Assembly (NCBI RefSeq): GCF_017811755.1
Contig: NZ_JADDJF010000012.1
Span: forward strand, 35,063-99,062
Source of the DNA: Pararhodobacter sp. SW119
GTDB lineage: Bacteria; Pseudomonadota; Alphaproteobacteria; Rhodobacterales; Rhodobacteraceae
DNA: 64,000 bases
Reading direction: 5' to 3'
The notes beneath the pieces were generated by a model, which was not told the origin of the DNA, did not search any database, and worked only from the letters and a program-made list of their open reading frames with translations. This document shows positions 12,521-45,953 of this stretch, in pieces. How positions within the stretch are numbered: position 1 is the first letter of the stretch; each line of letters starts with the position of its first letter. The position numbers and the translations under genes are program-made.

Positions 12521-12546
12521 GCGGTCGGCTTTTGCGGCAGGTCGGC

Positions 12547-12605
12547 AGGGGGGCGCTGCCCCCCTCTTGGCTGCGCCAATTCACCCCCCGGGATATTTCC
12601 GGACA
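12547..12605 (-). repeat. Intergenic repeat element, short inverted copy A (core only)
   Basis: This 59-bp segment between the two ABC exporter genes matches, in reverse orientation, the central core of the long repeats at 34549-34881 and 45101-45437. It has the GGGGGG/CCCCCC hairpin (12548-12564), then CTCTTGGCTGCGCCAATTCA, then CCCCCCGGGATATTT and CGGACA. Read in frame it yields the spurious peptide APIHPPGYFRT. The flanking parts of the long element are missing. The Shine-Dalgarno of the second exporter (AAGGG) lies immediately after it. Confidence 0.85.
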
Positions 12606-12626
12606 TATGAAGAAGGGCGCGCGGGC

Positions 12627-33609: not shown

Positions 33610-34512
33610 ATGCAGAACGCCAACACACGCCTGAACCTTTCCGCCGGCATCGCCTCGGTCACGGTGGCGGTCACGCTGATCGGGCTGAAGCTCTGGGCGC
33701 TCCTCGCCACCGGGGCGCTCAGCGTCGCGGCGTCGCTGGCCGACAACCTGCTGGATCTGGCGATGTCCGGGGGTGCGCTGGCCGCCATCGCCTATGCGGC
33801 GCGGCCGGCCGATCACGACCACGCCTTCGGCCATACCTCGGCCGAGGATCTGGCGGCCTTCCTGCAGTCGCTGATCGTGCTCGGCTCGGCCGGGCTGATC
33901 GGGACGCTGGCGATCCTGCGCGCCATATCGCCCGACCCGCCCCGGATCGGCGCCGAGGGGGTGGGCATCGCCGTCATGCTGCTGTCGCTGGTGCTGACCG
34001 CGGCGCTGGTCCTCTGGCTGCGCCATGTCGCGCGCCGCACCGGCAACCGCGTCGTCGCCGCCGACGCGCTGCACTACCTGTCGGACCTCTTGCCCACCGC
34101 GGGCGTGCTGGCCGCGCTCGCCGCCTCGGCGCTCTGGGGGGTGACGCATGTCGATACCGCCGTCGCGCTGGTCGCCGCCGCCTGGCTCGCGGTCAGCGGG
34201 CTGCGGATCGGGCGCGGCGCCTGGGACGCGCTGATGGACCGCGCCGCCGAGCCCGAGGTGCTGGCGCGGATCCGCGCCATCGCCGACGACTGGCCCCGGA
34301 TCGCCGGCTGGCACGACCTGAAGACCCGCACCGCGGGCTCGCGCCTGTTCATCTCGCTGCATGTCGAGATCGACGGCCGGATCACCCTGAACGAGGCCCA
34401 CGCCATCGCCGACGGCCTCGAACACGCGCTCGAATCGGCCTTCCCCGATGCCGAGGTCATCATCCACACCGACCCCGTCGGCCCAGGCTCGGGCCGCCAG
34501 GCCAAGGGCTGA
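33610..34512 (+). CDS. Cation diffusion facilitator family transporter
   Basis: A 300-aa CDF protein with six predicted helices and a C-terminal cytoplasmic domain. The transport site is seen in SLADNLLDLAMS (helix 2) and ALHYLSDLL (helix 5); DHDHAFGHTSAEDLAAF lies in the cytoplasmic loop. The FieF-like Asp/His set suggests Zn2+, Fe2+ or Mn2+ export driven by protons. The ferrous-iron member is not distinguishable from zinc exporters here. It is divergent from the acyl-CoA synthetase (200-bp gap, nothing else seen) and convergent with the M3 peptidase. Confidence 0.87.
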   Translation: MQNANTRLNLSAGIASVTVAVTLIGLKLWALLATGALSVAASLADNLLDLAMSGGALAAIAYAARPADHDHAFGHTSAEDLAAFLQSLIVLGSAGLIGTLAILRAISPDPPRIGAEGVGIAVMLLSLVLTAALVLWLRHVARRTGNRVVAADALHYLSDLLPTAGVLAALAASALWGVTHVDTAVALVAAAWLAVSGLRIGRGAWDALMDRAAEPEVLARIRAIADDWPRIAGWHDLKTRTAGSRLFISLHVEIDGRITLNEAHAIADGLEHALESAFPDAEVIIHTDPVGPGSGRQAKG

Positions 34513-34548: not shown

Positions 34549-34881
34549 GAAAAGGCCTCGGAAGTTCTCCCGCCCCTCGTCAGGCTGTGCGCTTGGCGCA
34601 CAACCTTCCTCGCGTTGGGCCGGGCGCCGCGCGCTTCGCGCGCGGCGAAAAGAGGCTACGACGCAAATACCGGGCAACCCCCACCTCCTCCGGCATTTTT
34701 GTCCGAAAATATCTCGGGGGGTGAATTGGCGCAGCCAAGAGGGGGGCAGCGCCCCCCTTCTGCGCCTCACTCAAAGGCCGTCACCGGCGCGCGCAGACCT
34801 TGCCAAATCCCTGCCGCACCGTTCGGAACTGCCATACGCTTGCCATACGCTTGCCAGCCCCTTGCCATACGCCCGCCAGCA
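34549..34881 (+). repeat. Long structured intergenic repeat element, copy B
   Basis: A 333-bp non-coding element matching 45101-45437 along nearly its whole length. Order of parts: a GAAGTTCTCCCGCCCCTCGT block with CAGGCTG, hairpin TGTGCGC-ttg-GCGCACA (34586-34602), AACCTTCCTCGCGTTGGGCC, hairpin GCCGCGCGC-ttc-GCGCGCGGC (34626-34646), a variable stretch, the core GTCCGAAAATATC, GGGGGGTGAATTGGCGCAGC, hairpin GGGGGGC/GCCCCCC (34741-34757), a CAGACCTTGCCAAATCCCTG block, and three TGCCATACGC units. It fills the gap between the convergent CDF and M3 peptidase genes and stops 2 bp short of the peptidase stop codon. Confidence 0.9.
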
Positions 34882-34883
34882 GC

Positions 34884-36893
34884 CTAGGCCGCGTCCAGTC
34901 CGCGCCCCTTCAGCAACGCCTCGACCCCCGGCATCCGGCCGCGAAAGGCGGTATAGAGCGCCGCGCCCTCGGCCGAATTCCCCGCCGAAAGGATGTGTTT
35001 CTCCAGCCGCGCCGCCAGGTCCCGGTCGAACGGATCGCCCGCCTCCTCGAAAGCGGCGAAGGCGTCGGCATCCATCACTTCCGACCACATGTAGCTGTAG
35101 TAGCCCGCCGAATACCCATCCCCGGTAAAGACATGCGCGAAATGCGGCGTCGCATGGCGCATGCCGATCGCCCGCGGCATGCCGATCGCCTCCAGCACCT
35201 CGGCCTGGCGCTGCATCGGATCGGCCGGCGGCTCGCCCGCGTGGAAATCCAGGTCGACCAGCGCCGAGGCCAGGTATTCCACCGTCGAGAACCCCTGGTT
35301 CCAGGTCGCCGCCGCCTTCAGCCGGGACCTGAGCGCCTCCGGCATCGGCTCCCCGGTGCGCCAGTGCCGCGCGTGTTTCTCCGTGATTTCAGGGACATCC
35401 AGCCAATGCTCGTAAAGCTGGCTGGGCAGTTCGACAAAGTCCCGCGCAACCGAGGTGCCCGCCACGAAACCGTAGGTGACGTCCGACAGGATGTGATGCA
35501 GCGCATGGCCGAACTCGTGAAACAGCGTCCCCGCGTCGTCCCACGACAACAGCGCCGGGTCGCCCTTGGCGAAGTTGCAGACATTGACCACCACCGCCCG
35601 CTGATCCCCGCCCAGCCGGCGCTGGCCGCGCAAGGAGGAACACCACGCGCCCGAGCGTTTCGAGCCCCGCGCGAAATAATCCCCAATGAAGACCGCCATG
35701 TGCCGCCCGTCCCGCGTGACCTCCCAGGCGCGCGCGTCGGGATGGTAGAGCCCCACCTCGATCGGGCGGAACGCCAGCCCGAACAGCCGATGCGCCACGT
35801 CGAAGGCCGCCGCGATCATCGCGTCGAGCGACAGGTAAGGCTTCAACTCGGCCTCGTCGAAATCATGCAGCGCGCGCCGCCGCTTCTCGGCGTAATAGCG
35901 CCAGTCCCAGGGCTCCAGCGGGCCCTCGAACCCGTCGGCATGCAGCATTTCCGCCATCGCCGCCCCGTCCGCCTCGGCCTGCGCCTTCGCCGGCGCCCAG
36001 ACCCGCATCAGAAGATCGCGCACCGCCTGCGGCGTGCCCGCCATCTCGGGCTCCAGCTTGTAGGTGGCGAAGTCCGGATAGCCCAGCAGCGCCGCGCGTT
36101 CCGCCCGAAGCTTCAGTGTCTCGGCGGCAATCGCGCGGTTGTCGGTGGCGCCACCGCCCGCGCCCCGCGCCGCCCAGGCCTGCCAGGCCTTCCGGCGCAG
36201 GTCGCGGCGCGGCGCATACTGCAGGAACGGCACGATCAGCGACCGGTTGAGCGTGACGACATGACCGCCGCGCCCCCGCTCCTCGGCCGCCGCCCGCGCC
36301 GCGTCGACGACGAAATCGGGCAGGCCGGAAAGATCCTCCAGCGGCATCTCCCAGTCCCGTTCGTCCGCCAGCAGGTTCTGCGCGAACGCCGTGCCGAGGC
36401 TCGCCAGCCGCGCCTTGACCGCCGCCATCCGCGCCTTGCCCGCGTCATCCAGCGCCGCACCCGCCCGCCGGAACATCCGCCGGTAAAGCATCAGCACGCG
36501 GTCCTGCTCCGGCGTCAGGTCCACGGACCCGCGCCGCGCCCACAGATCCTCGATCCGCGCAAACAGCGCCGCGTTCGCGGTGATCTCCGAGGCATGCGCC
36601 GCCAGCTTCGGCGCCAGATCCCGCGCCAGCGCCTCGCGCGCGGGGTTCGCGTCGCTGCCGTTGAGGTTGAAGAACAGCGCCGCCACCCGGTCCAGCCGGT
36701 CCTCGGCCAGTTCCAGCGCCTCGATCGTGTTGGCAAAGCTCGGCGGCTCGGGGTTCGCGGCGATGGCGTCGATGGCCGCGCGCCCCTCGGCCAGCGCGGC
36801 GTCGAAAGCCGGCGCGAAATGCGCGTCCTCGATCTCGGTGAAGGGCGGCAGGGCGAAGGGGCCGGTCCAGTCGGCCAGAAGCGGGTTGGTCAT
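34884..36893 (-). CDS. dcp: M3-family zinc metallopeptidase (peptidyl-dipeptidase Dcp / oligopeptidase A)
   Basis: A 669-aa cytosolic oligopeptidase. The zinc site HEFGHALHH lies near residue 455, with the downstream Glu ligand in the segment that follows. The start NPLLADWTGPFALPPFTEI and the C-terminal GYSAGYYSYMWSEVMDADAFAAF (core YYSYMWSEV) are typical of Dcp/PrlC. It degrades short peptides released by proteases. The 3' end abuts repeat copy B; the 135-bp gap upstream (36894-37028) holds nothing else. Confidence 0.92.
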   Translation of the reverse strand: MTNPLLADWTGPFALPPFTEIEDAHFAPAFDAALAEGRAAIDAIAANPEPPSFANTIEALELAEDRLDRVAALFFNLNGSDANPAREALARDLAPKLAAHASEITANAALFARIEDLWARRGSVDLTPEQDRVLMLYRRMFRRAGAALDDAGKARMAAVKARLASLGTAFAQNLLADERDWEMPLEDLSGLPDFVVDAARAAAEERGRGGHVVTLNRSLIVPFLQYAPRRDLRRKAWQAWAARGAGGGATDNRAIAAETLKLRAERAALLGYPDFATYKLEPEMAGTPQAVRDLLMRVWAPAKAQAEADGAAMAEMLHADGFEGPLEPWDWRYYAEKRRRALHDFDEAELKPYLSLDAMIAAAFDVAHRLFGLAFRPIEVGLYHPDARAWEVTRDGRHMAVFIGDYFARGSKRSGAWCSSLRGQRRLGGDQRAVVVNVCNFAKGDPALLSWDDAGTLFHEFGHALHHILSDVTYGFVAGTSVARDFVELPSQLYEHWLDVPEITEKHARHWRTGEPMPEALRSRLKAAATWNQGFSTVEYLASALVDLDFHAGEPPADPMQRQAEVLEAIGMPRAIGMRHATPHFAHVFTGDGYSAGYYSYMWSEVMDADAFAAFEEAGDPFDRDLAARLEKHILSAGNSAEGAALYTAFRGRMPGVEALLKGRGLDAA

Positions 36894-37028
36894 GCGGCGC
36901 GCATTCCTTGTGATGCTGTGTGATGGTCTACATCGGCCCGCGCGCCGCGCTTGTCCAGTGTCCCGGCTGACCGCGCCCGCGCCGCGGGGCGGGTGGGTGG
37001 GCGCGGCGGGTGCTCGGCGGGGGCGCGG

Positions 37029-38336
37029 TCAGCCTTGCGCCACGGCCTCCCCCTGCCCCCGCAGCAGCACCGCCGCCACCAGATCGCCGGTCACGTTGAC
37101 CGTCGTGCGGCACATGTCCAGCAGCCGGTCGACACCCAGGATGATCACCATCCCCTCGACCGGAATCCCCATCGAGGTCGCGACCGAGATCAGGATCGCG
37201 ATGCTCACCCCCGGCGTGCCCGGCGCCCCGATGGACGACGCCACCAGCGTCCCCACCACCACGACGATCTGCGCCGTGGTCAACTCCACTCCCGCCAGTT
37301 GCGCCAGGAACAGGATCGCCACCGCCTGGTAAAGCGCCGTGCCCGCCATGTTCATCGTCGCGCCCAGCGGCACCACCAGATTGGCGATGCTTTCCGGCAC
37401 GCCGAAGCGCCGCGCGGTCTGGATCGTGACCGGCATCACCGCCGAGGAGGAGGAGGTCGAGAACGCCAGCAGCAGGTTCCCCCCGGCCCGCGCCAGAAAG
37501 TCCCGGGGCGACAATCCCGCCACGGCCCACAGCGCCGCCAGATAGAGCGCCAGCAGCACCGCGAGCCCGGCCAGCACCGTGCCGACATAGCCGGAAATCC
37601 CCAGCAGCGTCTCGACGCCGGTGCGCATGACCAGCTGCGCCATCAGCCCGAAGACGGCAATTGGTGCCAGGAACATCGCCCATTTCACGATGTTCATGGA
37701 AATCGACAGGAGCGAATCCATCAGCGCCATGAAGGGCTCGGCCCGGCGGCGCTCGACCTGCGCGACCGAAAGGCCGACCAGCAGCGCCAGCACCACCACC
37801 GCCAGCATGTCGCCCTGCACGATGGACGCGGTGGGATTGGTCGGCAGGATATCGGCGATCAGGTCCGGCAACGGCGCGCGCCCGGCGGGTTCGGGCAACT
37901 CGCCCGGCGCCGCTGGCGCGCCGAAGCCCGACAGCGCCGCCCCCGGCCGCAGCCATTGCGCCAGCGCCACGCCGATCACCGCCGCCACCGTGGTGCTGGC
38001 CAGGATGAACCCCGCCAGCCGCAGCCCCACCGCGCGCAATTCGGCCCCCGACCCGGCCCCGGTCAGCCCGCCGACGATGGACGAAAAGATCAGCGGCACC
38101 AGCACCATGGCGATCAGCGCCAGGAAGATCCGCCCGGGCAGCGCCAGCCACAGGCCCAGCACCTCGGCCGTCGCCGGCGCGATCAGGCCGGTCGCGTCGC
38201 TCAGCAGCAGCCCCAGCCCGAAGCCCAGCACCATCCCCACCATCACCTGCGCCCAGAGGCGCGAGGTGATCCACACGCGCAGCTTGAACCGCTGGCGAGC
38301 GATATCGATGGGGTGGTCGGTGGCAGGCTCGGCCAT
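37029..38336 (-). CDS. Dicarboxylate/amino-acid:cation symporter (DAACS family)
   Basis: A 435-aa transporter of the GltP/DctA family. It has the serine-rich re-entrant loop STSSSSAVMP, the helix-7 motif NMAGTALYQA and the second hairpin GAPGTPGV, which together form the substrate and Na+/H+ sites. Candidate substrates are glutamate, aspartate or C4-dicarboxylates; neutral amino acids are also possible. A hydrophilic insertion rich in proline (GAPAAPGELPEPAGRAPLP) lies in the extracellular loop. The ATG at 38336 gives a family-like N-terminus; a longer frame exists. Confidence 0.88.
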   Translation of the reverse strand: MAEPATDHPIDIARQRFKLRVWITSRLWAQVMVGMVLGFGLGLLLSDATGLIAPATAEVLGLWLALPGRIFLALIAMVLVPLIFSSIVGGLTGAGSGAELRAVGLRLAGFILASTTVAAVIGVALAQWLRPGAALSGFGAPAAPGELPEPAGRAPLPDLIADILPTNPTASIVQGDMLAVVVLALLVGLSVAQVERRRAEPFMALMDSLLSISMNIVKWAMFLAPIAVFGLMAQLVMRTGVETLLGISGYVGTVLAGLAVLLALYLAALWAVAGLSPRDFLARAGGNLLLAFSTSSSSAVMPVTIQTARRFGVPESIANLVVPLGATMNMAGTALYQAVAILFLAQLAGVELTTAQIVVVVGTLVASSIGAPGTPGVSIAILISVATSMGIPVEGMVIILGVDRLLDMCRTTVNVTGDLVAAVLLRGQGEAVAQG

Positions 38337-38445
38337 GAGGACCAGCCAACCACACTCGGCCACGGCCCGCAACGCCGCCCTTCACTGCTGTGTGACTTGT
38401 CGCACCCCCACCCGCGCCCCATAACCTCAGGCAGGAGGATTGCCC

Positions 38446-39087
38446 ATGTTCCTGCGTCTCGCTGCCATTCTTGCCCTCACCCTCGGGCTTGCCGCCCCCG
38501 CCGCCGCACAGCGCCTGGAAACCGCGCTCGTCGCCGGCGGCTGTTTCTGGTGCGTCGAATCCGATTTCCGCCACGTCGAGGGCGTAACCGATGTCGAGGT
38601 CGGCTTTGCCGGCGGCCATGTCGAAAACCCCAGCTATCGCCAGGTCGTCTCGGGCGGCACCGGCCATCTGGAGGTGGCGCTCATCACCTATGACGCCGAC
38701 CAGATCAGCTACGCGCAGGTCCTGCACATGTTCATGCGCTCGATCGACCCGCTGGACGCCGGCGGGCAGTTCTGCGACCGGGGAGAGGCCTACACGACGG
38801 CGATCTTCGCCACGCCCGAGCAGCGCGACACCGCGCAAGCCGCGCTCGACGCCGCCAGCGCCGAACTTGGGCGCAGCATCGTAACCCCGCTGCGCGACAT
38901 GGCCACATTCTACCCGGCCGAGGAGTACCACCAGGGCTACCCGTTCAGCGGCGACATCGTGCTCACCCGCTTCGGCCCGCTGACAAAGGCCGCGGCCTAC
39001 CAGCGCTACCGCACCTCCTGCGGGCGCGACGCCCGCGTGCAGGAAGTCTGGGGCGACGCCGCGCCTTTCGCCGCCGGCAAGAGCTGA
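38446..39087 (+). CDS. msrA: Peptide methionine-S-sulfoxide reductase, exported
   Basis: A 213-aa MsrA with the active site GGC33[16 protein letters not shown] and YHQGYPF motifs. Unlike cytosolic MsrA it begins with a signal peptide ([20 protein letters not shown]), so it should repair oxidised methionine in periplasmic proteins. A candidate resolving cysteine is in [14 protein letters not shown] lies 7 bases upstream of the ATG. It is divergent from the symporter gene and convergent with the kinase gene. Confidence 0.93.
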
Positions 39088-39113
39088 CCTCGACACCAAC
39101 CGCCGACTAGCCA

Positions 39114-39131
39114 CTGCCCTGCGCAGGGCAG
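39114..39131. other. 18-bp palindrome between convergent genes
   Basis: CTGCCCTGCGCAGGGCAG is a perfect palindrome in the 50-bp gap between msrA and the kinase gene. It may form the terminating hairpin for both, although neither side has a T-run. Confidence 0.45.
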
Positions 39132-39137
39132 CGTCGT

Positions 39138-40028
39138 TCAGCCCGACGGGTCGCCCTGCGTCGCCAGCAGCGCCTCCACCTCGCCGCGGTCCGGCATGGC
39201 GGTCGAAGTGCCCTCCCGCGTGACCTGGATCGCAGCCGCCGCGGCGGCGTAGCGCAGCGCCTGTTCGGGGCTCATCCCGTCGTCCAGCGCCGCGACCAGC
39301 GAACCGGCGAAACAGTCGCCCGCGCCGGTCGTGTCCACAGCCTCCACCGCCACCGCCGGCACCTTGATCGGCGCCGCGCCGGCGGCGATCCATTCCGCGC
39401 CCTCGGCCCCTTTCGTGACCACCACACCCTCGAGCGGCAGATCCTCCAGCCGCGTGTCCATCGCCTGGCAGAGTTCCGCCGCCTCGACGGCATTGACCAG
39501 CAGATGCGTCACATGCGGCATCACCGCCTGCAGCGCCTCCATCTCGAACGGCGCCGCCGAATAGAAGACCCGCAGGTGCTTTTCATGGGCCCGCTTCGCC
39601 GCCGCGACCTGGTGCGAGGTCTCGTTCTGCAGAAGCAGGATGTCGCCCGCCTGCGCCCCGCTCAGCGCCGCCTCGATCGCGTCCTCGTCCTGCAGCCGGT
39701 TGGCGCCGGGATGGATCAGGATGGAATTCTCGCCCGCCGGATCGACGGCGATGATCGCATGCCCCGTCGGCCCCTCGACCCGCGCGATGGTTCCCAGGTC
39801 GATCCCCAGTGCCGACAGTTGCGCCGCGGTCCAGCCGTCCGCCGCGCCGATCGCGCCGATGTGCACCAGCCGCGCGCCCGCGCGCAGCGCCGCGACCGAC
39901 TGGTTCGCGCCCTTGCCGCCCAGCGTCTGCGCATAGTCGCTCGCCGCCAGCGTCTCGCCCGCGTGCGGCAGATGCGGCACGCGGTAGACATGATCGATGT
40001 TGATCGAGCCGAGGTTGAAGACGGTCAT
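39138..40028 (-). CDS. rbsK: Ribokinase-like PfkB-family carbohydrate kinase
   Basis: A 296-aa sugar kinase. PfkB signature 1 is LGGKGANQSVAALRAG (about 37-52), with family-typical AGETLAA before it; signature 2 is DTTGAGDCFAGSLVAAL near 233 with the catalytic Asp. The NLGSINIDHVYRVPHLPHAGE start is the ribokinase form, so ribose is the likeliest substrate, but no ribose transporter is adjacent. It starts 4 bp after maeB on the same strand. Confidence 0.83.
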   Translation of the reverse strand: MTVFNLGSINIDHVYRVPHLPHAGETLAASDYAQTLGGKGANQSVAALRAGARLVHIGAIGAADGWTAAQLSALGIDLGTIARVEGPTGHAIIAVDPAGENSILIHPGANRLQDEDAIEAALSGAQAGDILLLQNETSHQVAAAKRAHEKHLRVFYSAAPFEMEALQAVMPHVTHLLVNAVEAAELCQAMDTRLEDLPLEGVVVTKGAEGAEWIAAGAAPIKVPAVAVEAVDTTGAGDCFAGSLVAALDDGMSPEQALRYAAAAAAIQVTREGTSTAMPDRGEVEALLATQGDPSG

Positions 40029-40032
40029 GCGC

Positions 40033-42291
40033 TCATCCGATCCGGCAGGCGGCCATCACCGCCATGTTCAGCACGTCGTTCACCGTCGCCCCGGTGGAGC
40101 TGATCTGGATCGGCTTCGTCACCCCGGTCAGGATCGGGCCGATCACCGTCGCGCCCGCCATCTCCTGCATCAGCTTGACCGAGATCGAGGCCGAATGCCG
40201 CGCCGGCACCACCAGGATGTTCGCCGGCCCCGTCAGGCGCGAGAACGGGTAGTTCGCCGCCGCCGCCGGGTTCAGCGCCACATCGACCGTCATCTCGCCC
40301 TCGTATTCGAAATCGACGCCGCGGCGGTCCAGCACCTCGGGGGCGCGGTGCATCTTGGTCGCGCGTTCCGACACCGGGTAGCCGAAGGTCGAGAAGCTGA
40401 CGAAGGCCACCCGCGGCTCCAGCCCCAACCCGCGGGCGACGGCACTCGCGCGGGTGGCGATGTCGGCCAGATCCTCCTCCTCGGGCCATTCGTGGACCAG
40501 CGTGTCGGCGATCAGCAGGATGCGCCCGCGGTGCAGCAGGATCGACACGCCCACCGCCCCGTCCTGCGCACGGGCATCGAAGACATGGTTGATCATGTCC
40601 ATGACCAGCGCCGACTTGCGCGTGGCCCCGGTCACCAGCCCGTCGCCATGCCCGTGCGCCAGCATCAGCGCGGCAAAGATATGCCGGTCGCGCGTCGCCA
40701 TCCGATGAACGTCGCGCTGGTCGAACCCCTTGCGCTGCAACCGCTTGTAGAGAAACGCCTTGTAGGCATCCAGATGCCGCGTGTTGGCGGCGTTGACGAT
40801 CTCCAGCTCGCGCACCGCATCGCCCAGCCCGGCCAGTTCCAGCCGGCGCTTGGTGTCCTCCTCCTGGCCGACGACCACCGCATGGCCCAGCCCCGACCGC
40901 TGGTAGCTGACCGCCGCGCGCAGCACGCGCTCGTCGTCGCCCTCGGCAAAGATCATCCGCGCCTGCGCCTGGCGCGCCCGCGCGAACAGGCTCTGCTGGA
41001 TCGAGGCGGTCGGGTCCATCCGCGCCTTCAGCGCGTGGCGATAGGCCTCCATGTCGATAATCGGCCGCCGCGCCGCGCCGGTATCCATGCCCGCCTTCGC
41101 CACCGCCGGCGGGATCGTGTAGATCAGCCGCGGGTCGAAGGGCGTCGGGATGATGTAGTCGCGCCCGAAGCTCAGCTTGCGCCCGTAGGCCATGGCGACC
41201 TCCTCGGGCACCGCCTCGCGCGCCAGTTCCGCCAGCGCGCGGGCGCAGGCGATCTTCATCTCGTCGTTGATGGCGCGCGCCTGGATGTCCAGCGCGCCGC
41301 GGAAGAGATAGGGAAAGCCCAGGACGTTGTTGACCTGGTTGGGGTAATCCGACCGCCCCGTCGCCACGATGGCGTCGGCGCGCACGGCATGGGCTTCCTC
41401 GGGCGTGATCTCGGGGTCGGGGTTGGCCATGGCAAAGATCACCGGGTTCTCGGCCATGCTCTCGACCATCGCCTCCGTCACCGCGCCCTTGGCCGACACG
41501 CCCAGGAAGACATCCGCGCCCGCCATCGCCTCCTCCAGCGTGCGCAGTGTGGTCTTCGCCGCATGGGCGGACTTCCACTGGTTCATCCCCTCGGTGCGGC
41601 CCTGGTACACCACCCCCTTGGTGTCGCACATGATGCAGTTCTCGGCCCGCGCGCCCATCGACTTGAGCAGCTCCAGACAGGCAATCCCCGCCGCCCCGGC
41701 GCCGTTCAGAACGATCCGCACCTCCTCGATCCGCTTGCCCGACAGCGCCAGCGCGTTGATCAGCCCCGCCGCGCAGATCACCGCCGTGCCGTGCTGGTCG
41801 TCGTGAAAGACCGGAATGTCGCACAACTCCTTCAGCCGGCTCTCGATGATGAAGCACTCGGGCGCCTTGATGTCTTCCAGGTTGATCCCGCCGAAGGTCG
41901 GGCTCATCAGATGCACGGCCTTGATGATCTCGTCGGCATCCTCGGTATCCAGTTCGATATCGATGGCGTTGACATCGGCGAAGCGCTTGAACAGCACCGC
42001 CTTGCCCTCCATCACCGGCTTCGAGGCCAGCGCGCCCAGGTTCCCCAGCCCCAGGATCGCGGTCCCGTTCGACACCACCGCGACCATGTTGCCCTTGGTC
42101 GTGTAGTCGTAAGCCAGGATCGGATCGCGCGCGATCGCCTCGACCGGCACCGCCACGCCGGGGCTGTAGGCCAGGCTCAGGTCGCGCTGCGTCGCCATCG
42201 GCTTCGACGCGATCACCTCCAGCTTCCCCGGCACCGGCTCGAAATGGTAGGCAAGCGCCTCTTCGGGCGTCGTCTTCGACTTGCGGCTCAT
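40033..42291 (-). CDS. maeB: NADP-dependent malic enzyme with phosphotransacetylase-like C-terminus
   Basis: A 752-aa two-domain protein. Residues 1 to about 430 form the malic enzyme (YSPGVAVPVEAIA, FHDDQHGTAVICAAGLINAL, GAGAAGIACLELL, ANPDPEITPEEA), which makes pyruvate and CO2 from malate. The rest is a phosphate acetyl/butyryltransferase-like domain (IFAEGDDERVLRAA ... NILVVPARHSASISVKLMQE), known as regulatory in MaeB. The start at 42291 follows GGGAGTG; a longer reading by 8 residues is less likely. It is divergent from mutS across 125 bp. Confidence 0.94.
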   Translation of the reverse strand: MSRKSKTTPEEALAYHFEPVPGKLEVIASKPMATQRDLSLAYSPGVAVPVEAIARDPILAYDYTTKGNMVAVVSNGTAILGLGNLGALASKPVMEGKAVLFKRFADVNAIDIELDTEDADEIIKAVHLMSPTFGGINLEDIKAPECFIIESRLKELCDIPVFHDDQHGTAVICAAGLINALALSGKRIEEVRIVLNGAGAAGIACLELLKSMGARAENCIMCDTKGVVYQGRTEGMNQWKSAHAAKTTLRTLEEAMAGADVFLGVSAKGAVTEAMVESMAENPVIFAMANPDPEITPEEAHAVRADAIVATGRSDYPNQVNNVLGFPYLFRGALDIQARAINDEMKIACARALAELAREAVPEEVAMAYGRKLSFGRDYIIPTPFDPRLIYTIPPAVAKAGMDTGAARRPIIDMEAYRHALKARMDPTASIQQSLFARARQAQARMIFAEGDDERVLRAAVSYQRSGLGHAVVVGQEEDTKRRLELAGLGDAVRELEIVNAANTRHLDAYKAFLYKRLQRKGFDQRDVHRMATRDRHIFAALMLAHGHGDGLVTGATRKSALVMDMINHVFDARAQDGAVGVSILLHRGRILLIADTLVHEWPEEEDLADIATRASAVARGLGLEPRVAFVSFSTFGYPVSERATKMHRAPEVLDRRGVDFEYEGEMTVDVALNPAAAANYPFSRLTGPANILVVPARHSASISVKLMQEMAGATVIGPILTGVTKPIQISSTGATVNDVLNMAVMAACRIG

Positions 42292-42416
42292 GCGGGCACT
42301 CCCTTCCCTCTGCACAATCCTTAACCCTGCTGTGGCCCCGGCTCAACGCGGGTTTTCCCGCTTTCGCGCGACGGGCCGGTTTTGTAGGGTCGCGCCGCAG
42401 CGAACGGGGGAAGCTG

Positions 42417-45071
42417 GTGAGCGACGCGCAGGCCAATGTCACGCCCATGATGGCGCAGTATCTGCAGATCAAGGCGCAGAACCCGGATGCGCTGCTGTTC
42501 TACCGCATGGGCGATTTCTACGAGATGTTCTTCGACGACGCCGTGGCGGCGGCGGCGGCGCTGGATATCGCGCTGACCAAGCGCGGCCAGCACCAGGGCG
42601 CCGACATCCCGATGTGCGGCGTGCCGGTCCATTCGGCCGAGGGCTACTTGCTGACGCTGATCCGCAAGGGTTTTCGCGTCGCCATCGCCGAACAGCTGGA
42701 GGACCCGGCCGAGGCGAAGAAGCGCGGCGCCAAGTCGGTCGTGAAGCGCGACGTCGTCCGCCTCGTCACCCCCGGCACGCTGACCGAGGAATCGCTGCTC
42801 GAAGCCCGGCGCCACAACTTCCTCGCCGCCTGGTCCCAGGTCCGCGACGACGCCGCACTCGCCTGGGCCGACATCTCGACGGGCGAGATCCGCGTCATCC
42901 CCTGCCCGCGCGTGCGCCTCGCCCCCGAACTCGCCCGCCTCGCCCCCCGCGAACTGATCGTCGTGGACGAGGCCGAACCCGACCTGCGCCCGCTGGCCGA
43001 AGAACACGCCCTCGCCCTGACCCCGATGGCCCGCGCCAGCTTCGATTCGACCGGCGCCACGCGCCGCCTCTGCGCGCTCTACAACGTCGCCGCGCTCGAC
43101 GGCTTCGGCACCTTCGGCCGGGCTGAGCTGTCGGCGCTCGGCGCTCTGGTCGACTACCTCGACCTCACGCAGCGCGGCAACCTGCCGCTCCTGCGCCCGC
43201 CGGTGCGCGAAAGCGCGGGCGCGGTGATGCAGATCGACGCCGCCACCCGCCGCAGCCTGGAAATCACGCAAGGCGCCGCCGGCGGCCGCGACGGCTCGCT
43301 CTTGGCCGCCATCGACACCACCCTCACCGCCGCCGGCGCCCGGCTGATGGAGCGCCGCCTTTCGGCCCCCTCCTGCGACTTGGTCGAGATCCGCGCCCGC
43401 CTGACCGCCGTTGGTTTCCTGGTCGAGGATGACGCGCTGCGCGGCGACCTGCGCGCGGCCCTGCGCCAAGTGCCCGACATCGACCGCGCGCTCTCGCGCC
43501 TCTCGCTCGACCGCGGCGGGCCGCGCGACCTCGCCATGCTGCGCGCCGGCCTGCGCCAGGCCGCCGCCCTGCGCCGGGCGCTTGGCGATCGTGATATGCC
43601 ACCCCTGCTGTCCGACCTGACCCGTGAACTTGGCGGCCACGCCGACCTGATCCACCGGCTGGAAACCGCGCTGGTGGCCGAACCCCCGCATCTCGCCCGC
43701 GACGGCGGCTTCATCGCCGAAGGGGTGGATCCGGAACTCGACGAGGCCCGGCGCCTGCGCGACGAAGGCCGCGGCGTCATCGCCGCGATGCAGGCCGACT
43801 ACATCGCCCAGACCGGCATCGGCTCGCTGAAGATCAAGCACAACAACGTCCTCGGCTACTTCATCGAAACCACCGCGACCCATGCCGAGAAGATGCTGGC
43901 GCCGCCGCATTCCGAAACCTTCGTCCACCGCCAGACCACCGCCAACCAGGTCCGCTTCACCACGCTGAAACTCAGCGAGATGGAGACGAAGATCCTCAAC
44001 GCCGGATCGCGCGCGCTGGAGATCGAGAAGCGTCTTTTCGAGGAATTGCGAAATACCGTCACCGCCGCCGCGCCCGCGATCTTCGCCACCGCCCGCGCGC
44101 TGGGCGAGCTTGACCTCGCCGCCGCCTTCGCCGACTTCGCCCGCGCCCGCGACTGGTGCGCGCCCGCCGTCGACGACAGCCGCGCCTTCGTGGTCGAGGG
44201 AGGCCGCCACCCGGTCGTCGAACGCGCGCTCACGCGCGACGGCCAGCCCTTCGTCGCCAACGACGCCGACCTCTCGCCCGAGGGGTCGGGGGCAGCAATC
44301 TGGCTGGTGACCGGTCCCAACATGGCCGGCAAGTCGACCTACCTGCGGCAGAACGCGCTGATCGCACTTCTCGCCCAGGCCGGCAGCTTCGTGCCCGCCA
44401 GCCGCGCCGAGATCGGGCTGGTGAGCCAGCTCTTCAGCCGCGTCGGCGCCTCGGACGACCTGGCGCGCGGCCGATCGACCTTCATGGTCGAAATGGTGGA
44501 AACCGCCGCGATCCTCAACCAGGCCGATACCCGCGCCTTCGTCATCCTCGACGAGATCGGGCGCGGCACGGCGACCTATGACGGGCTGTCGATCGCCTGG
44601 GCGGTGCTGGAACACCTGCACGACGCCAACCGCTGCCGCGCGCTCTTCGCCACGCATTACCACGAGATGACGGCACTCTCCGAACGCCTCTCGGGCGTGC
44701 GCAACGCCACGGTCAGCGTCCGCGAATGGCAGGGCGAGGTGGTCTTCCTGCACGAGGTCAAGCGCGGCGCCGCGGACCGGTCCTACGGCGTGCAGGTCGC
44801 GCGCCTCGCCGGCCTGCCGCCGGCGGTGATCGACCGCGCGCGCGCCGTGCTCGAGATGCTGGAAAAGGGCGAGGACGGCCGCCGCGGCGCCCGCGCGCTG
44901 ATCGACGACCTGCCGCTCTTTTCCGCAGCACCCCCCGCCCCGCCCCCGAAAGCCGCGCCAGCCTCCGAAATCGAGGCCCGCCTGCGCGACACCCACCCCG
45001 ACGCCCTCACCCCACGCGAGGCGCTGGCACTCCTCTACGAGCTGCGCGAGATGCTCCCCGATCAGACCTAG
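42417..45071 (+). CDS. mutS: DNA mismatch repair protein MutS
   Basis: An 884-aa mismatch-recognition ATPase. The N-terminal mismatch-binding motif is in MGDFYEMFFDDAV (the Phe-x-Glu wedge, FYEMF), followed by connector, core and clamp domains. The ATPase has Walker A GPNMAGKST near 634, Walker B FVILDEIGRGT and the H of FATHYHE. A proline-rich linker (APPAPPPKAAP) leads to a C-terminal tetramerisation helix. The start is GTG after GGGGGAAG. Repeat copy C begins 30 bp after the stop. Confidence 0.96.
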   Translation: MSDAQANVTPMMAQYLQIKAQNPDALLFYRMGDFYEMFFDDAVAAAAALDIALTKRGQHQGADIPMCGVPVHSAEGYLLTLIRKGFRVAIAEQLEDPAEAKKRGAKSVVKRDVVRLVTPGTLTEESLLEARRHNFLAAWSQVRDDAALAWADISTGEIRVIPCPRVRLAPELARLAPRELIVVDEAEPDLRPLAEEHALALTPMARASFDSTGATRRLCALYNVAALDGFGTFGRAELSALGALVDYLDLTQRGNLPLLRPPVRESAGAVMQIDAATRRSLEITQGAAGGRDGSLLAAIDTTLTAAGARLMERRLSAPSCDLVEIRARLTAVGFLVEDDALRGDLRAALRQVPDIDRALSRLSLDRGGPRDLAMLRAGLRQAAALRRALGDRDMPPLLSDLTRELGGHADLIHRLETALVAEPPHLARDGGFIAEGVDPELDEARRLRDEGRGVIAAMQADYIAQTGIGSLKIKHNNVLGYFIETTATHAEKMLAPPHSETFVHRQTTANQVRFTTLKLSEMETKILNAGSRALEIEKRLFEELRNTVTAAAPAIFATARALGELDLAAAFADFARARDWCAPAVDDSRAFVVEGGRHPVVERALTRDGQPFVANDADLSPEGSGAAIWLVTGPNMAGKSTYLRQNALIALLAQAGSFVPASRAEIGLVSQLFSRVGASDDLARGRSTFMVEMVETAAILNQADTRAFVILDEIGRGTATYDGLSIAWAVLEHLHDANRCRALFATHYHEMTALSERLSGVRNATVSVREWQGEVVFLHEVKRGAADRSYGVQVARLAGLPPAVIDRARAVLEMLEKGEDGRRGARALIDDLPLFSAAPPAPPPKAAPASEIEARLRDTHPDALTPREALALLYELREMLPDQT

Positions 45072-45100
45072 CGCGCCCCGCCCCACCCCGCGCCACCGGC

Positions 45101-45437
45101 CGAAAAGCCCCCGGAAGTTCTCCCGCCCCTCGTCAGGCTGTGCGCGTTCCGCGCACGAACCTTCCTCGCGTTGGGCCGGGCGCCGCGCCCTGCGGGCGCG
45201 GCGAAAAGGGGGCCCCGCCGCCACGGGTGGGCGTCCCCACGGCCCCGGACATTTTCTGTCCGAAAATATCCCGGGGGGTGAATTGGCGCAGCCAAGAGGG
45301 GGCAGCGCCCCCCTTCCCCGCCTCAGCCAAGGCCCGACACCGGCGGGCGCAGACCTTGCCAAATCCCTGCCGCACCGTTCGGAACTGCCATACGCTTGCC
45401 ATACGCCTGCCAGCCCCTTGCCATACGCCTGCCAGCA
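45101..45437 (+). repeat. Long structured intergenic repeat element, copy C
   Basis: A 337-bp non-coding element in the same orientation as copy B (34549-34881) and alignable with it throughout. Hairpins: GTGCGCG-ttc-CGCGCAC (45140-45156), GCCGCGCCC-tgc-GGGCGCGGC (45182-45202), and the G/C-run hairpin near 45298-45312. The core GTCCGAAAATATC, GGGGGGTGAATTGGCGCAGC, the CAGACCTTGCCAAATCCCTG block and three TGCCATACGC units are conserved. The stretch between the second hairpin and the core is unrelated to copy B. It lies between the convergent mutS and rpsO genes, just before the rpsO terminator. Confidence 0.9.
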
Positions 45438-45474
45438 CCCTGCCGGCGGCGGGCGCACGCGCTGCGGCCGGCAC

Positions 45475-45586: not shown

Positions 45587-45856
45587 TCAGCGGCGGATGC
45601 CCAGGCGCCCGATGAGGTCGCGATAGCGCCCCTCGTCCTTGCCGCGCAGGTAGTCCAAGAGCTTGCGGCGCTGCGCCACCATCATCAGAAGGCCACGGCG
45701 CGAGTGGTTGTCCTTCTTGTGGCTCTTGAAATGCTCGGTCAGCGTGCTGATCCGCGAGGTCAGGATCGCGACCTGCACCTCGGGCGATCCGGTATCGCCT
45801 TCCTTGGTGGCGAATTCCTTGATGACGCGGGCTTTTTCTTCGACTGTGATCGACAT
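45587..45856 (-). CDS. rpsO: 30S ribosomal protein S15
   Basis: An 89-aa ribosomal protein with the family landmarks [19 protein letters not shown] (16S rRNA-binding; core DTGSPEVQ), [19 protein letters not shown] and [19 protein letters not shown] precedes the ATG. The usual downstream partner pnp is not present on this side; instead the gene ends in its own terminator. The upstream leader of about 100 nt is where S15 autoregulatory structures occur in other bacteria, but no specific fold is claimed. Confidence 0.97.
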
Positions 45857-45953
45857 CGGGGTCTCCTGTTCAAAGGGTTCAAGGCGCAAGCCGGGATGTC
45901 GTCCAGCAGGGCCCGTGGAGGGATCGCCCCGACTCGGCGGCCGGGGATGCGCG

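What the first reader, a model, noticed from the sequence alone, without database searches (positions are those of the whole stretch)
34549..45437. Long structured intergenic repeat, two ~335-bp copies between convergent gene pairs
Copies at 34549-34881 and 45101-45437 align along nearly their full length in the same orientation, share three hairpin positions and a conserved core, and each fills the gap between convergent genes (CDF/M3 peptidase; mutS/rpsO). The conservation is patchy: structured blocks are kept and a central spacer is not. That is unlike a recent simple duplication and more like a mobile or selected structural element. I am not aware of a named family for it.
Basis: partly seen in the sequence, partly recalled or inferred. 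Interest (0 to 1): 0.8.

Follow-up and report, generated by a model that had tools for sequence, protein, structure and literature searches.

The report
Two-faced hairpin repeats ending genes
The two copies belong to a repeat that is scattered through this genome and built from three modules; one module recurs in other genera of its bacterial family (likely Rhodobacteraceae) with fixed joints but freely changing hairpin arms, sits mostly where genes end, and would likely cap or stabilise RNA arriving from either side.

Summary
Both copies (34559-34885, 45112-45445; 87% identical) belong to a genome-wide mosaic repeat of three modules: A (two hairpins), B (73-bp hairpin core) and C (11-bp tandem units). 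Capped searches of the own genome gave 38 A and 59 B hits. B is in 193 of 248 family genomes. A is in 52 of 394 family genomes and 1 of 385 class genomes, the window's own. Rfam has no match.

A keeps fixed blocks (CTCCCGCC, GTTGGGCC) while its hairpin arms change but stay paired. Of 1,615 stem positions 6 were G-U. Complete copies are symmetric. A lies between convergent genes in 22 of 33 cases, against 4 of 34 element-free window gaps, without orientation bias. One orthologous gene end carries A in 12 of 16 genus genomes: 10 by model, 2 partial by eye.

Best reading: an orientation-independent RNA 3'-end structure spread as a non-autonomous repeat. The function is inferred; no expression data were seen. 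A selfish repeat, or a DNA-hairpin substrate of an unknown enzyme, is not excluded.

The parts
34559..34657 (+). Module A, copy 1: conserved blocks around two hairpins
   Evidence: alignment of 21 copies; R3 match 34560-34655, 66.6 bits, E 1.9e-9
34688..34759 (+). Module B core, copy 1
   Evidence: R1 match, 92.1 bits
34800..34886 (+). Module C, copy 1: 11-bp tandem units; its end meets the peptidase stop codon
45112..45211 (+). Module A, copy 2
   Evidence: R3 match 45113-45211, 56.9 bits, E 9.9e-8
45244..45315 (+). Module B core, copy 2
   Evidence: R1 match, 93.2 bits
45355..45445 (+). Module C, copy 2: 11-bp tandem units
12546..12618 (-). Solo module B in a tandem gene gap
   Evidence: R1 match, 93.6 bits; context
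33610..34512 (+). Cation-efflux (CDF) gene; stop about 46 bp before copy 1
34884..36893 (-). Peptidase M3 gene, convergent
42417..45071 (+). mutS; stop about 40 bp before copy 2
45587..45856 (-). rpsO (S15), convergent
   Evidence: Pfam match; the gene caller put the start at 45889, the 89-residue form starts at 45856

Best explanation
The two copies are members of a genome-wide mosaic repeat whose module A recurs in many genera of the family at gene 3' ends, and A likely works as an orientation-independent 3'-end structure: RNA entering it from either side would fold into paired hairpins that cap or delimit the transcript. Shown by calls: the modules, copy numbers (lower bounds), placement, lack of orientation bias, covariation, the near absence of G-U pairs, and symmetry of complete copies. 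Inferred: that the fold forms in the cell, that it protects mRNA from 3' exonucleases or fixes the 3' end after Rho-dependent or read-through transcription, and that spread is by an unidentified trans-acting enzyme plus conversion between copies. C accompanies A at several sites in the own genome and in two sister genomes; B appears to have joined the pair in the own lineage.
For: Placement: of 33 A-containing clusters with both flanks called, 22 are convergent, 9 tandem, 2 divergent; the window's element-free gaps are 4 convergent, 22 tandem, 8 divergent. In other genera, 27 of 33 loci had both flanks called: 14 convergent, 13 tandem, 0 divergent. Orientation is even: tandem A 5 same, 4 opposite; B 10 and 12. 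Structure: on 15 diverged A copies 81.6% of cells pair vs 72.1% shuffled, covariation 0.265 vs 0.121, 0 of 500 shuffles as high. Vertical retention: of 16 genus genomes with the ortholog of one acyl-CoA dehydrogenase, R3 finds A behind it in 10; two more show its start and are cut by contig end or poly-G (by eye). In that orthologous alignment two column pairs stay paired in 10 of 10 with changes on both sides. Both-strand constraint: 1,533 Watson-Crick, 6 G-U, 51 A-C, 25 other among 1,615 inner stem positions of 111 readings. Symmetry: 6 elements carry all four blocks and read as A on both strands (12 of 42 readings; 0 of 42 in the upstream control). A complete copy in Tritonibacter mobilis folds at -90.5 kcal/mol, z -7.7, and about equally on the other strand.
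Against: A carries no T run: the scan found a T-run hairpin within 150 bp of the stop in 0 of 30 A-adjacent gene ends, against 11 of 90 controls (B 5 of 33, C 1 of 26), so plain intrinsic termination is not supported. Convergent placement alone also fits parasites: pneumococcal BOX, RUP and IS elements are enriched there too (PMC3049150, passages). A window copy alone folds only modestly better than shuffles (z -1.8, 16 of 200 as good); 8 of 79 first hairpins fold worse than the mean of their shuffles. In one search two of five measures were reached by 12 of 500 shuffles, and the structure was drawn from the same sequences. Four of the 16 genus genomes lack A at the conserved site. The background sample is 34 gaps, and in 4 of the 27 loci a called flank is over 500 bp away. 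No transcript data were seen.
Confidence: 0.42

Rival explanations
1. A selfish non-autonomous mosaic repeat (BOX- or MITE-like) that survives mainly where insertion does least harm, downstream of genes. Structure would serve its own mobilisation, not the host.
For: Copies are dispersed, modular and lineage-variable. One site is occupied in G009 and empty in G000. G000 has A-B-C at six sites where the orthologous site in G008 or G009 has A without a B match. BOX elements show the same convergent bias (PMC3049150, passages).
Against: A is kept at the same gene end in 12 of 16 genus genomes with compensating changes in the 10 aligned, which a decaying parasite does not predict. Exact A and B patterns had no match in viral contigs and the full element none in phages. 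No mobilising enzyme identified.
Confidence: 0.3
2. A DNA-level hairpin or four-way junction that a structure-reading protein (recombinase, nuclease or nucleoid protein) recognises; the joints are bound, the arms only need perfect pairing.
For: Near absence of G-U pairs, which pair in RNA but not on the opposite strand; fixed joints with free arms; symmetric complete copies.
Against: Strong preference for gene 3' ends is not required by this model. No candidate protein found; Y1_Tnp matched in 2 of 18 genus genomes.
Confidence: 0.2
3. Hairpin arms are rewritten by template switching during replication, which always restores perfect palindromes, so pairing reflects mutation and not selection.
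For: Arms differ widely between copies yet are almost perfect (59 distinct inner arm pairs among 114 readings), with few half-way states.
Against: The blocks between the arms stay fixed, and the CCG/CGG helix that closes around the first hairpin also covaries.
Confidence: 0.15

Closest known systems
BOX elements of Streptococcus pneumoniae (boxA-boxB-boxC)
   Same: Modular composite repeat, one module a tandem array, predicted to fold, enriched between convergent genes (PMC3049150, passages)
   Different: No sequence relation was tested; here the array (C) is at one end, and A has fixed joints with freely changing arms
REP / BIME with RAYT transposases
   Same: Short hairpin repeats, many copies, some inverted pairs (L115, L342)
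   Different: The REPs listed in the passages seen begin with GTAG, GTGG or TGTRG-like starts (PMC2817692), A does not; Y1_Tnp matched in 2 of 18 genus genomes
RIME and other Rhizobium mosaic repeats
   Same: Alphaproteobacterial mosaic intergenic repeats (only cited in PMC2873474, passages; details recalled)
   Different: Sequence not compared; A matched in 1 of 385 class genomes, the window's own
CcsR / cuckoo RNAs of Rhodobacter
   Same: Structured RNAs found in many alphaproteobacteria; many A copies hold a CTCCTCCC stretch like the CcsR motif as I recall it
   Different: CcsR RNAs are co-transcribed with a DUF1127 gene (PMC10253847, passages); A lies at the ends of varied genes
Integron attC sites (recalled)
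   Same: Recognised through folded strand, variable arms, GTTRRRY-like box
   Different: Box order is reversed: GTTGGGC outside and GCCCAAC inside, by the recalled definition

Membership tests
REP/RAYT repeats | Leading GTRG tetranucleotide before the hairpin | tested here: not met
   Consensus blocks before the hairpins are CCCGTCG and GTTGGGCC, by inspection
REP/RAYT repeats | Y1_Tnp (RAYT) in carrier genomes | tested here: not met
   PF01797 matched in 2 of 18 genus genomes; all 18 match the element and 15 have B rows in the truncated list; some genomes are incomplete
BOX-like composite repeat | Separable modules that also occur alone | tested here: met
   A, B and C each occur alone or in part among 76 clusters
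BOX-like composite repeat | Sequence homology to boxA/B/C | not tested
   No comparison made
MITE | Terminal inverted repeats | tested here: inconclusive
   CTCCCGC../GCGGGAG ends in complete copies only: 6 elements, 12 of 42 readings; not seen in the window copies
MITE | Target-site duplication | tested here: inconclusive
   One empty site compared, too diverged to read a duplication
Intrinsic terminator | Hairpin followed by a T run | tested here: not met
   0 of 30 A-adjacent gene ends in a simple scan
Known RNA family (Rfam 15) | Match at gathering score | tested here: not met
   Window: only a tRNA; 13 loci at E up to 1: one chance-like hit, mir-4672, E 0.31

The most novel reading that the evidence does not exclude
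Module A is a new class of two-sided gene-end element: a four-way-junction fold with fixed joints and disposable arms, under Watson-Crick constraint on both strands, that marks the ends of convergent transcripts in many genera of its family and has been kept at one site through the divergence of a genus.
Probability: 0.33. Interest if true: 0.82.

Novelty: new variant of a known kind. Interest (0 to 1): 0.6.

Why it matters
Rhodobacteraceae are abundant in the sea and include phototrophic models (recalled), and a simple scan here found T-run hairpins at only 11 of 90 control gene ends, so how their genes end is an open point. A multi-copy structural element at gene ends, absent from Rfam and found in 51 genera, would give a ready annotation model and a testable account of convergent gene ends. 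Pairing with hardly any G-U is unusual for an RNA motif and separates one-strand RNA models from two-strand or DNA-level ones.

Tried and rejected
Degenerate protein gene: rejected, the copies lie between called genes and differ by indels. Recent duplication of two copies: rejected. Known RNA: no Rfam match. RAYT-driven REP: not supported. Phage or plasmid cargo: no phage hit; no viral-contig hit for exact A and B patterns; four plasmid records with B only, three with A; a further A query found none. Intrinsic terminator: no T run. A second acyl-CoA dehydrogenase, in G055, with A at its end looked like a cross-genus ortholog but is only 53% identical and was not counted. R3 found no A in 80 named rpsO loci; R1 found B in 5 of the 80.

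Rows dropped before counts: L016 from A2; L007, L009, L013, L015, L016 and L019 of the 21 own copies from A3; L013 and L016 from A4; L316, L317 and L321 from A6 (15 of 18 loci kept); G013 and G015 from A7. R3 was built from loci that R2, made mainly from own-genome copies, had found, so its recovery of the window copies is not fully independent. Candidate lists were capped (40 scored per genome, 10), so copy numbers are lower bounds. The 33 C hits come only from the 293 kb of stretches fetched around A and B hits. Two of the 76 clusters had no sequence at hand. In the hairpin counts symmetric elements are read once on each strand, so readings exceed elements. The stem finder behind the G-U count penalises G-U and A-C alike; its tRNA control is small (5 G-U of 84 pairs, 12 tRNAs).

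Full report
What was checked. A search of the window's own genome (4.51 Mb, 192 contigs) gave 40 scored matches, the cap, among 185 candidates; 21 are near full length at 79-100% identity to copy 2.

Anatomy. The alignment of 21 copies shows three conserved modules and two variable spacers. A (about 100 bp) holds CTCCCGCC, a first hairpin, CTCGCGTTGGGCCGGGC, and a second, GC-rich hairpin. B (73 bp) holds CTGTCCGAAAATATCCCGGGGGGTGAA and two small hairpins. C is an array of 11-bp units near TTGCCATACGC. The modules are separable: covariance models gave 59 B and 38 A hits in the genome, and BLAST gave 33 C hits in the 293 kb of stretches fetched around them; together they form 76 clusters, many with one or two modules only.

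Relatives. In the genus, all 18 genomes match by BLAST; in the truncated list 15 have rows over B, and A rows appear for G000, G008, G009 and G014. Later, finer looks found A in further genus genomes. B is found in 193 of 248 family genomes. R2, built mainly from own copies, found diverged A in 15 of 248. The consensus in those other genera, GCTCCCGCCCGTCGTC-hairpin-CTCCTCCCGTTGGGCCGGGC-hairpin, keeps the blocks while the hairpin arms differ widely. R3, built from 15 of 18 such loci, finds A in 52 of 394 family genomes from 51 genera, and in 1 of 385 class genomes, the window's own; at least four other family members in that sample had none. R3 also scores both window copies (66.6 and 56.9 bits). 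Named carriers seen are Tritonibacter mobilis and Parasedimentitalea marina for A, and two Salipiger, Marinibacterium and T. mobilis records for B. In 150 kb of a T. mobilis replicon and 100 kb of a P. marina plasmid R3 marks three and one places (one of the three weak, E 0.014). Annotated flanks agree: the P. marina A and the Marinibacterium B lie between convergent genes. The T. mobilis copy lies between ORFs on one strand.

Structure. On the 15 diverged A copies the named structure pairs in 81.6% of cells against 72.1% after shuffling, with covariation 0.265 against 0.121 and 0 of 500 shuffles as high; slid versions reach at most 0.135; two other measures were reached by 12 of 500 shuffles. 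The structure was drawn from these sequences, which favours it. Block-anchored segments, with no structural alignment, mostly fold better than their own shuffles: median z -1.68 for the first hairpin and -1.75 for the second over 79 readings, with z above 0 in 8 and 4. In 111 readings the inner stem positions are 1,533 Watson-Crick, 6 G-U, 51 A-C and 25 other. An RNA constrained on one strand should hold more G-U than A-C. The pattern instead asks for pairing on both strands, for a DNA-level constraint, or for arms rewritten in one step. A few complete copies are symmetric: CTCCCGCC, hairpin, GTTGGGCC, hairpin, GGCCCAA, hairpin, GCGGGAG. Six elements are read as A on both strands (12 of 42 readings; 0 of 42 in the upstream control). 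The T. mobilis copy folds at -90.5 kcal/mol, z -7.7, and nearly as well on the other strand. The window copy is weaker (z -1.8, 16 of 200 shuffles as good).

Placement. In the own genome the nearest gene 3' end is a median of 31 bp from A-containing clusters and 8 bp from B clusters without A. Of A-containing clusters with both flanks called, 22 of 33 are convergent and 2 divergent; the window's element-free gaps are 4 convergent, 22 tandem and 8 divergent. In other genera 14 of 27 are convergent and none divergent; the gene caller was trained on the own genome, and in 4 of the 27 a called flank is over 500 bp away. B without A is 7 convergent, 22 tandem, 0 divergent. Neither module prefers an orientation.

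Age and change. Of 35 A-bearing loci fetched from G008 and G009, 14 map by their flanks to 11 own-genome A sites, and a fifteenth, L300, is doubtful because the distance to the gene differs. Nine were read side by side. At six of them the relative has A without a B match while the own genome has A-B-C, so B was added, or copies were converted, in one lineage; loss of B in the relatives is not excluded. The 11-bp period of C persists at shared sites although the unit changes. One G009 copy faces an empty own-genome site. Of 18 genus genomes, 16 have the ortholog of one acyl-CoA dehydrogenase (the other two gave only paralogs). R3 finds A behind it in 10, two more show its start and are cut, and four lack it. 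In the alignment of the 10 the CCG/CGG helix changes on both sides and stays paired in columns 10-51 and 12-49 (10 of 10 each), while columns 11-50 pair in 5 of 10; I chose these columns after seeing the alignment. This is the best evidence that the structure is kept by selection and not only tolerated.

Mechanism. I commit to an orientation-independent 3'-end structure. Steps shown: placement, pairing, symmetry of complete copies, retention at one site. Steps inferred: folding in the cell and protection or delimitation of RNA. Canonical intrinsic termination is not supported, since 0 of 30 A-adjacent ends carry a T-run hairpin against 11 of 90 controls. Spread needs an unknown enzyme or conversion between copies; RAYT is unlikely.

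Known work. Rfam gives nothing. Paper searches listed no paper that names this repeat; only open-licence PubMed Central papers are held and I saw listings, not all texts. A systematic stem-loop survey of bacterial genomes held no occurrence of Rhodobacter or Silicibacter in its main text (PMC2267715, term search). The R. pomeroyi sRNA paper was seen in passages only and describes no such repeat there (PMC4809877).

Noticed in passing
12546-12618 (-): A solo module B sits in a tandem gene gap of the same window.
   Followed up: partly
L384, L385, L388, L392, L393, L394, downstream of the acyl-CoA dehydrogenase: A stretch near CGGTCATCGGCTC.CCAGCCTGTACC is conserved in the genus and two other genera; no Rfam match at gathering score in L392, L394, L376 and L389.
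   Followed up: partly
G000 contigs C68, C125, C108, C113 and C114: Several contigs begin or end inside or close to element copies, as if the assembly broke at them.
   Followed up: no
L115; L342: Inverted pairs of B (L115) and of A (L342) form longer palindromes.
   Followed up: no
G000:C1:222262-222556: A, B and an inverted A share one convergent gap.
   Followed up: no
G000:C35:63425-63682: A Y1_Tnp-like gene is present in the own genome; G010 is the only other genus genome with a match.
   Followed up: no
G009 contigs such as C148, C343, C4: Many further matches to module C without A beside them in the list: the 11-bp array looks like a repeat in its own right there.
   Followed up: no
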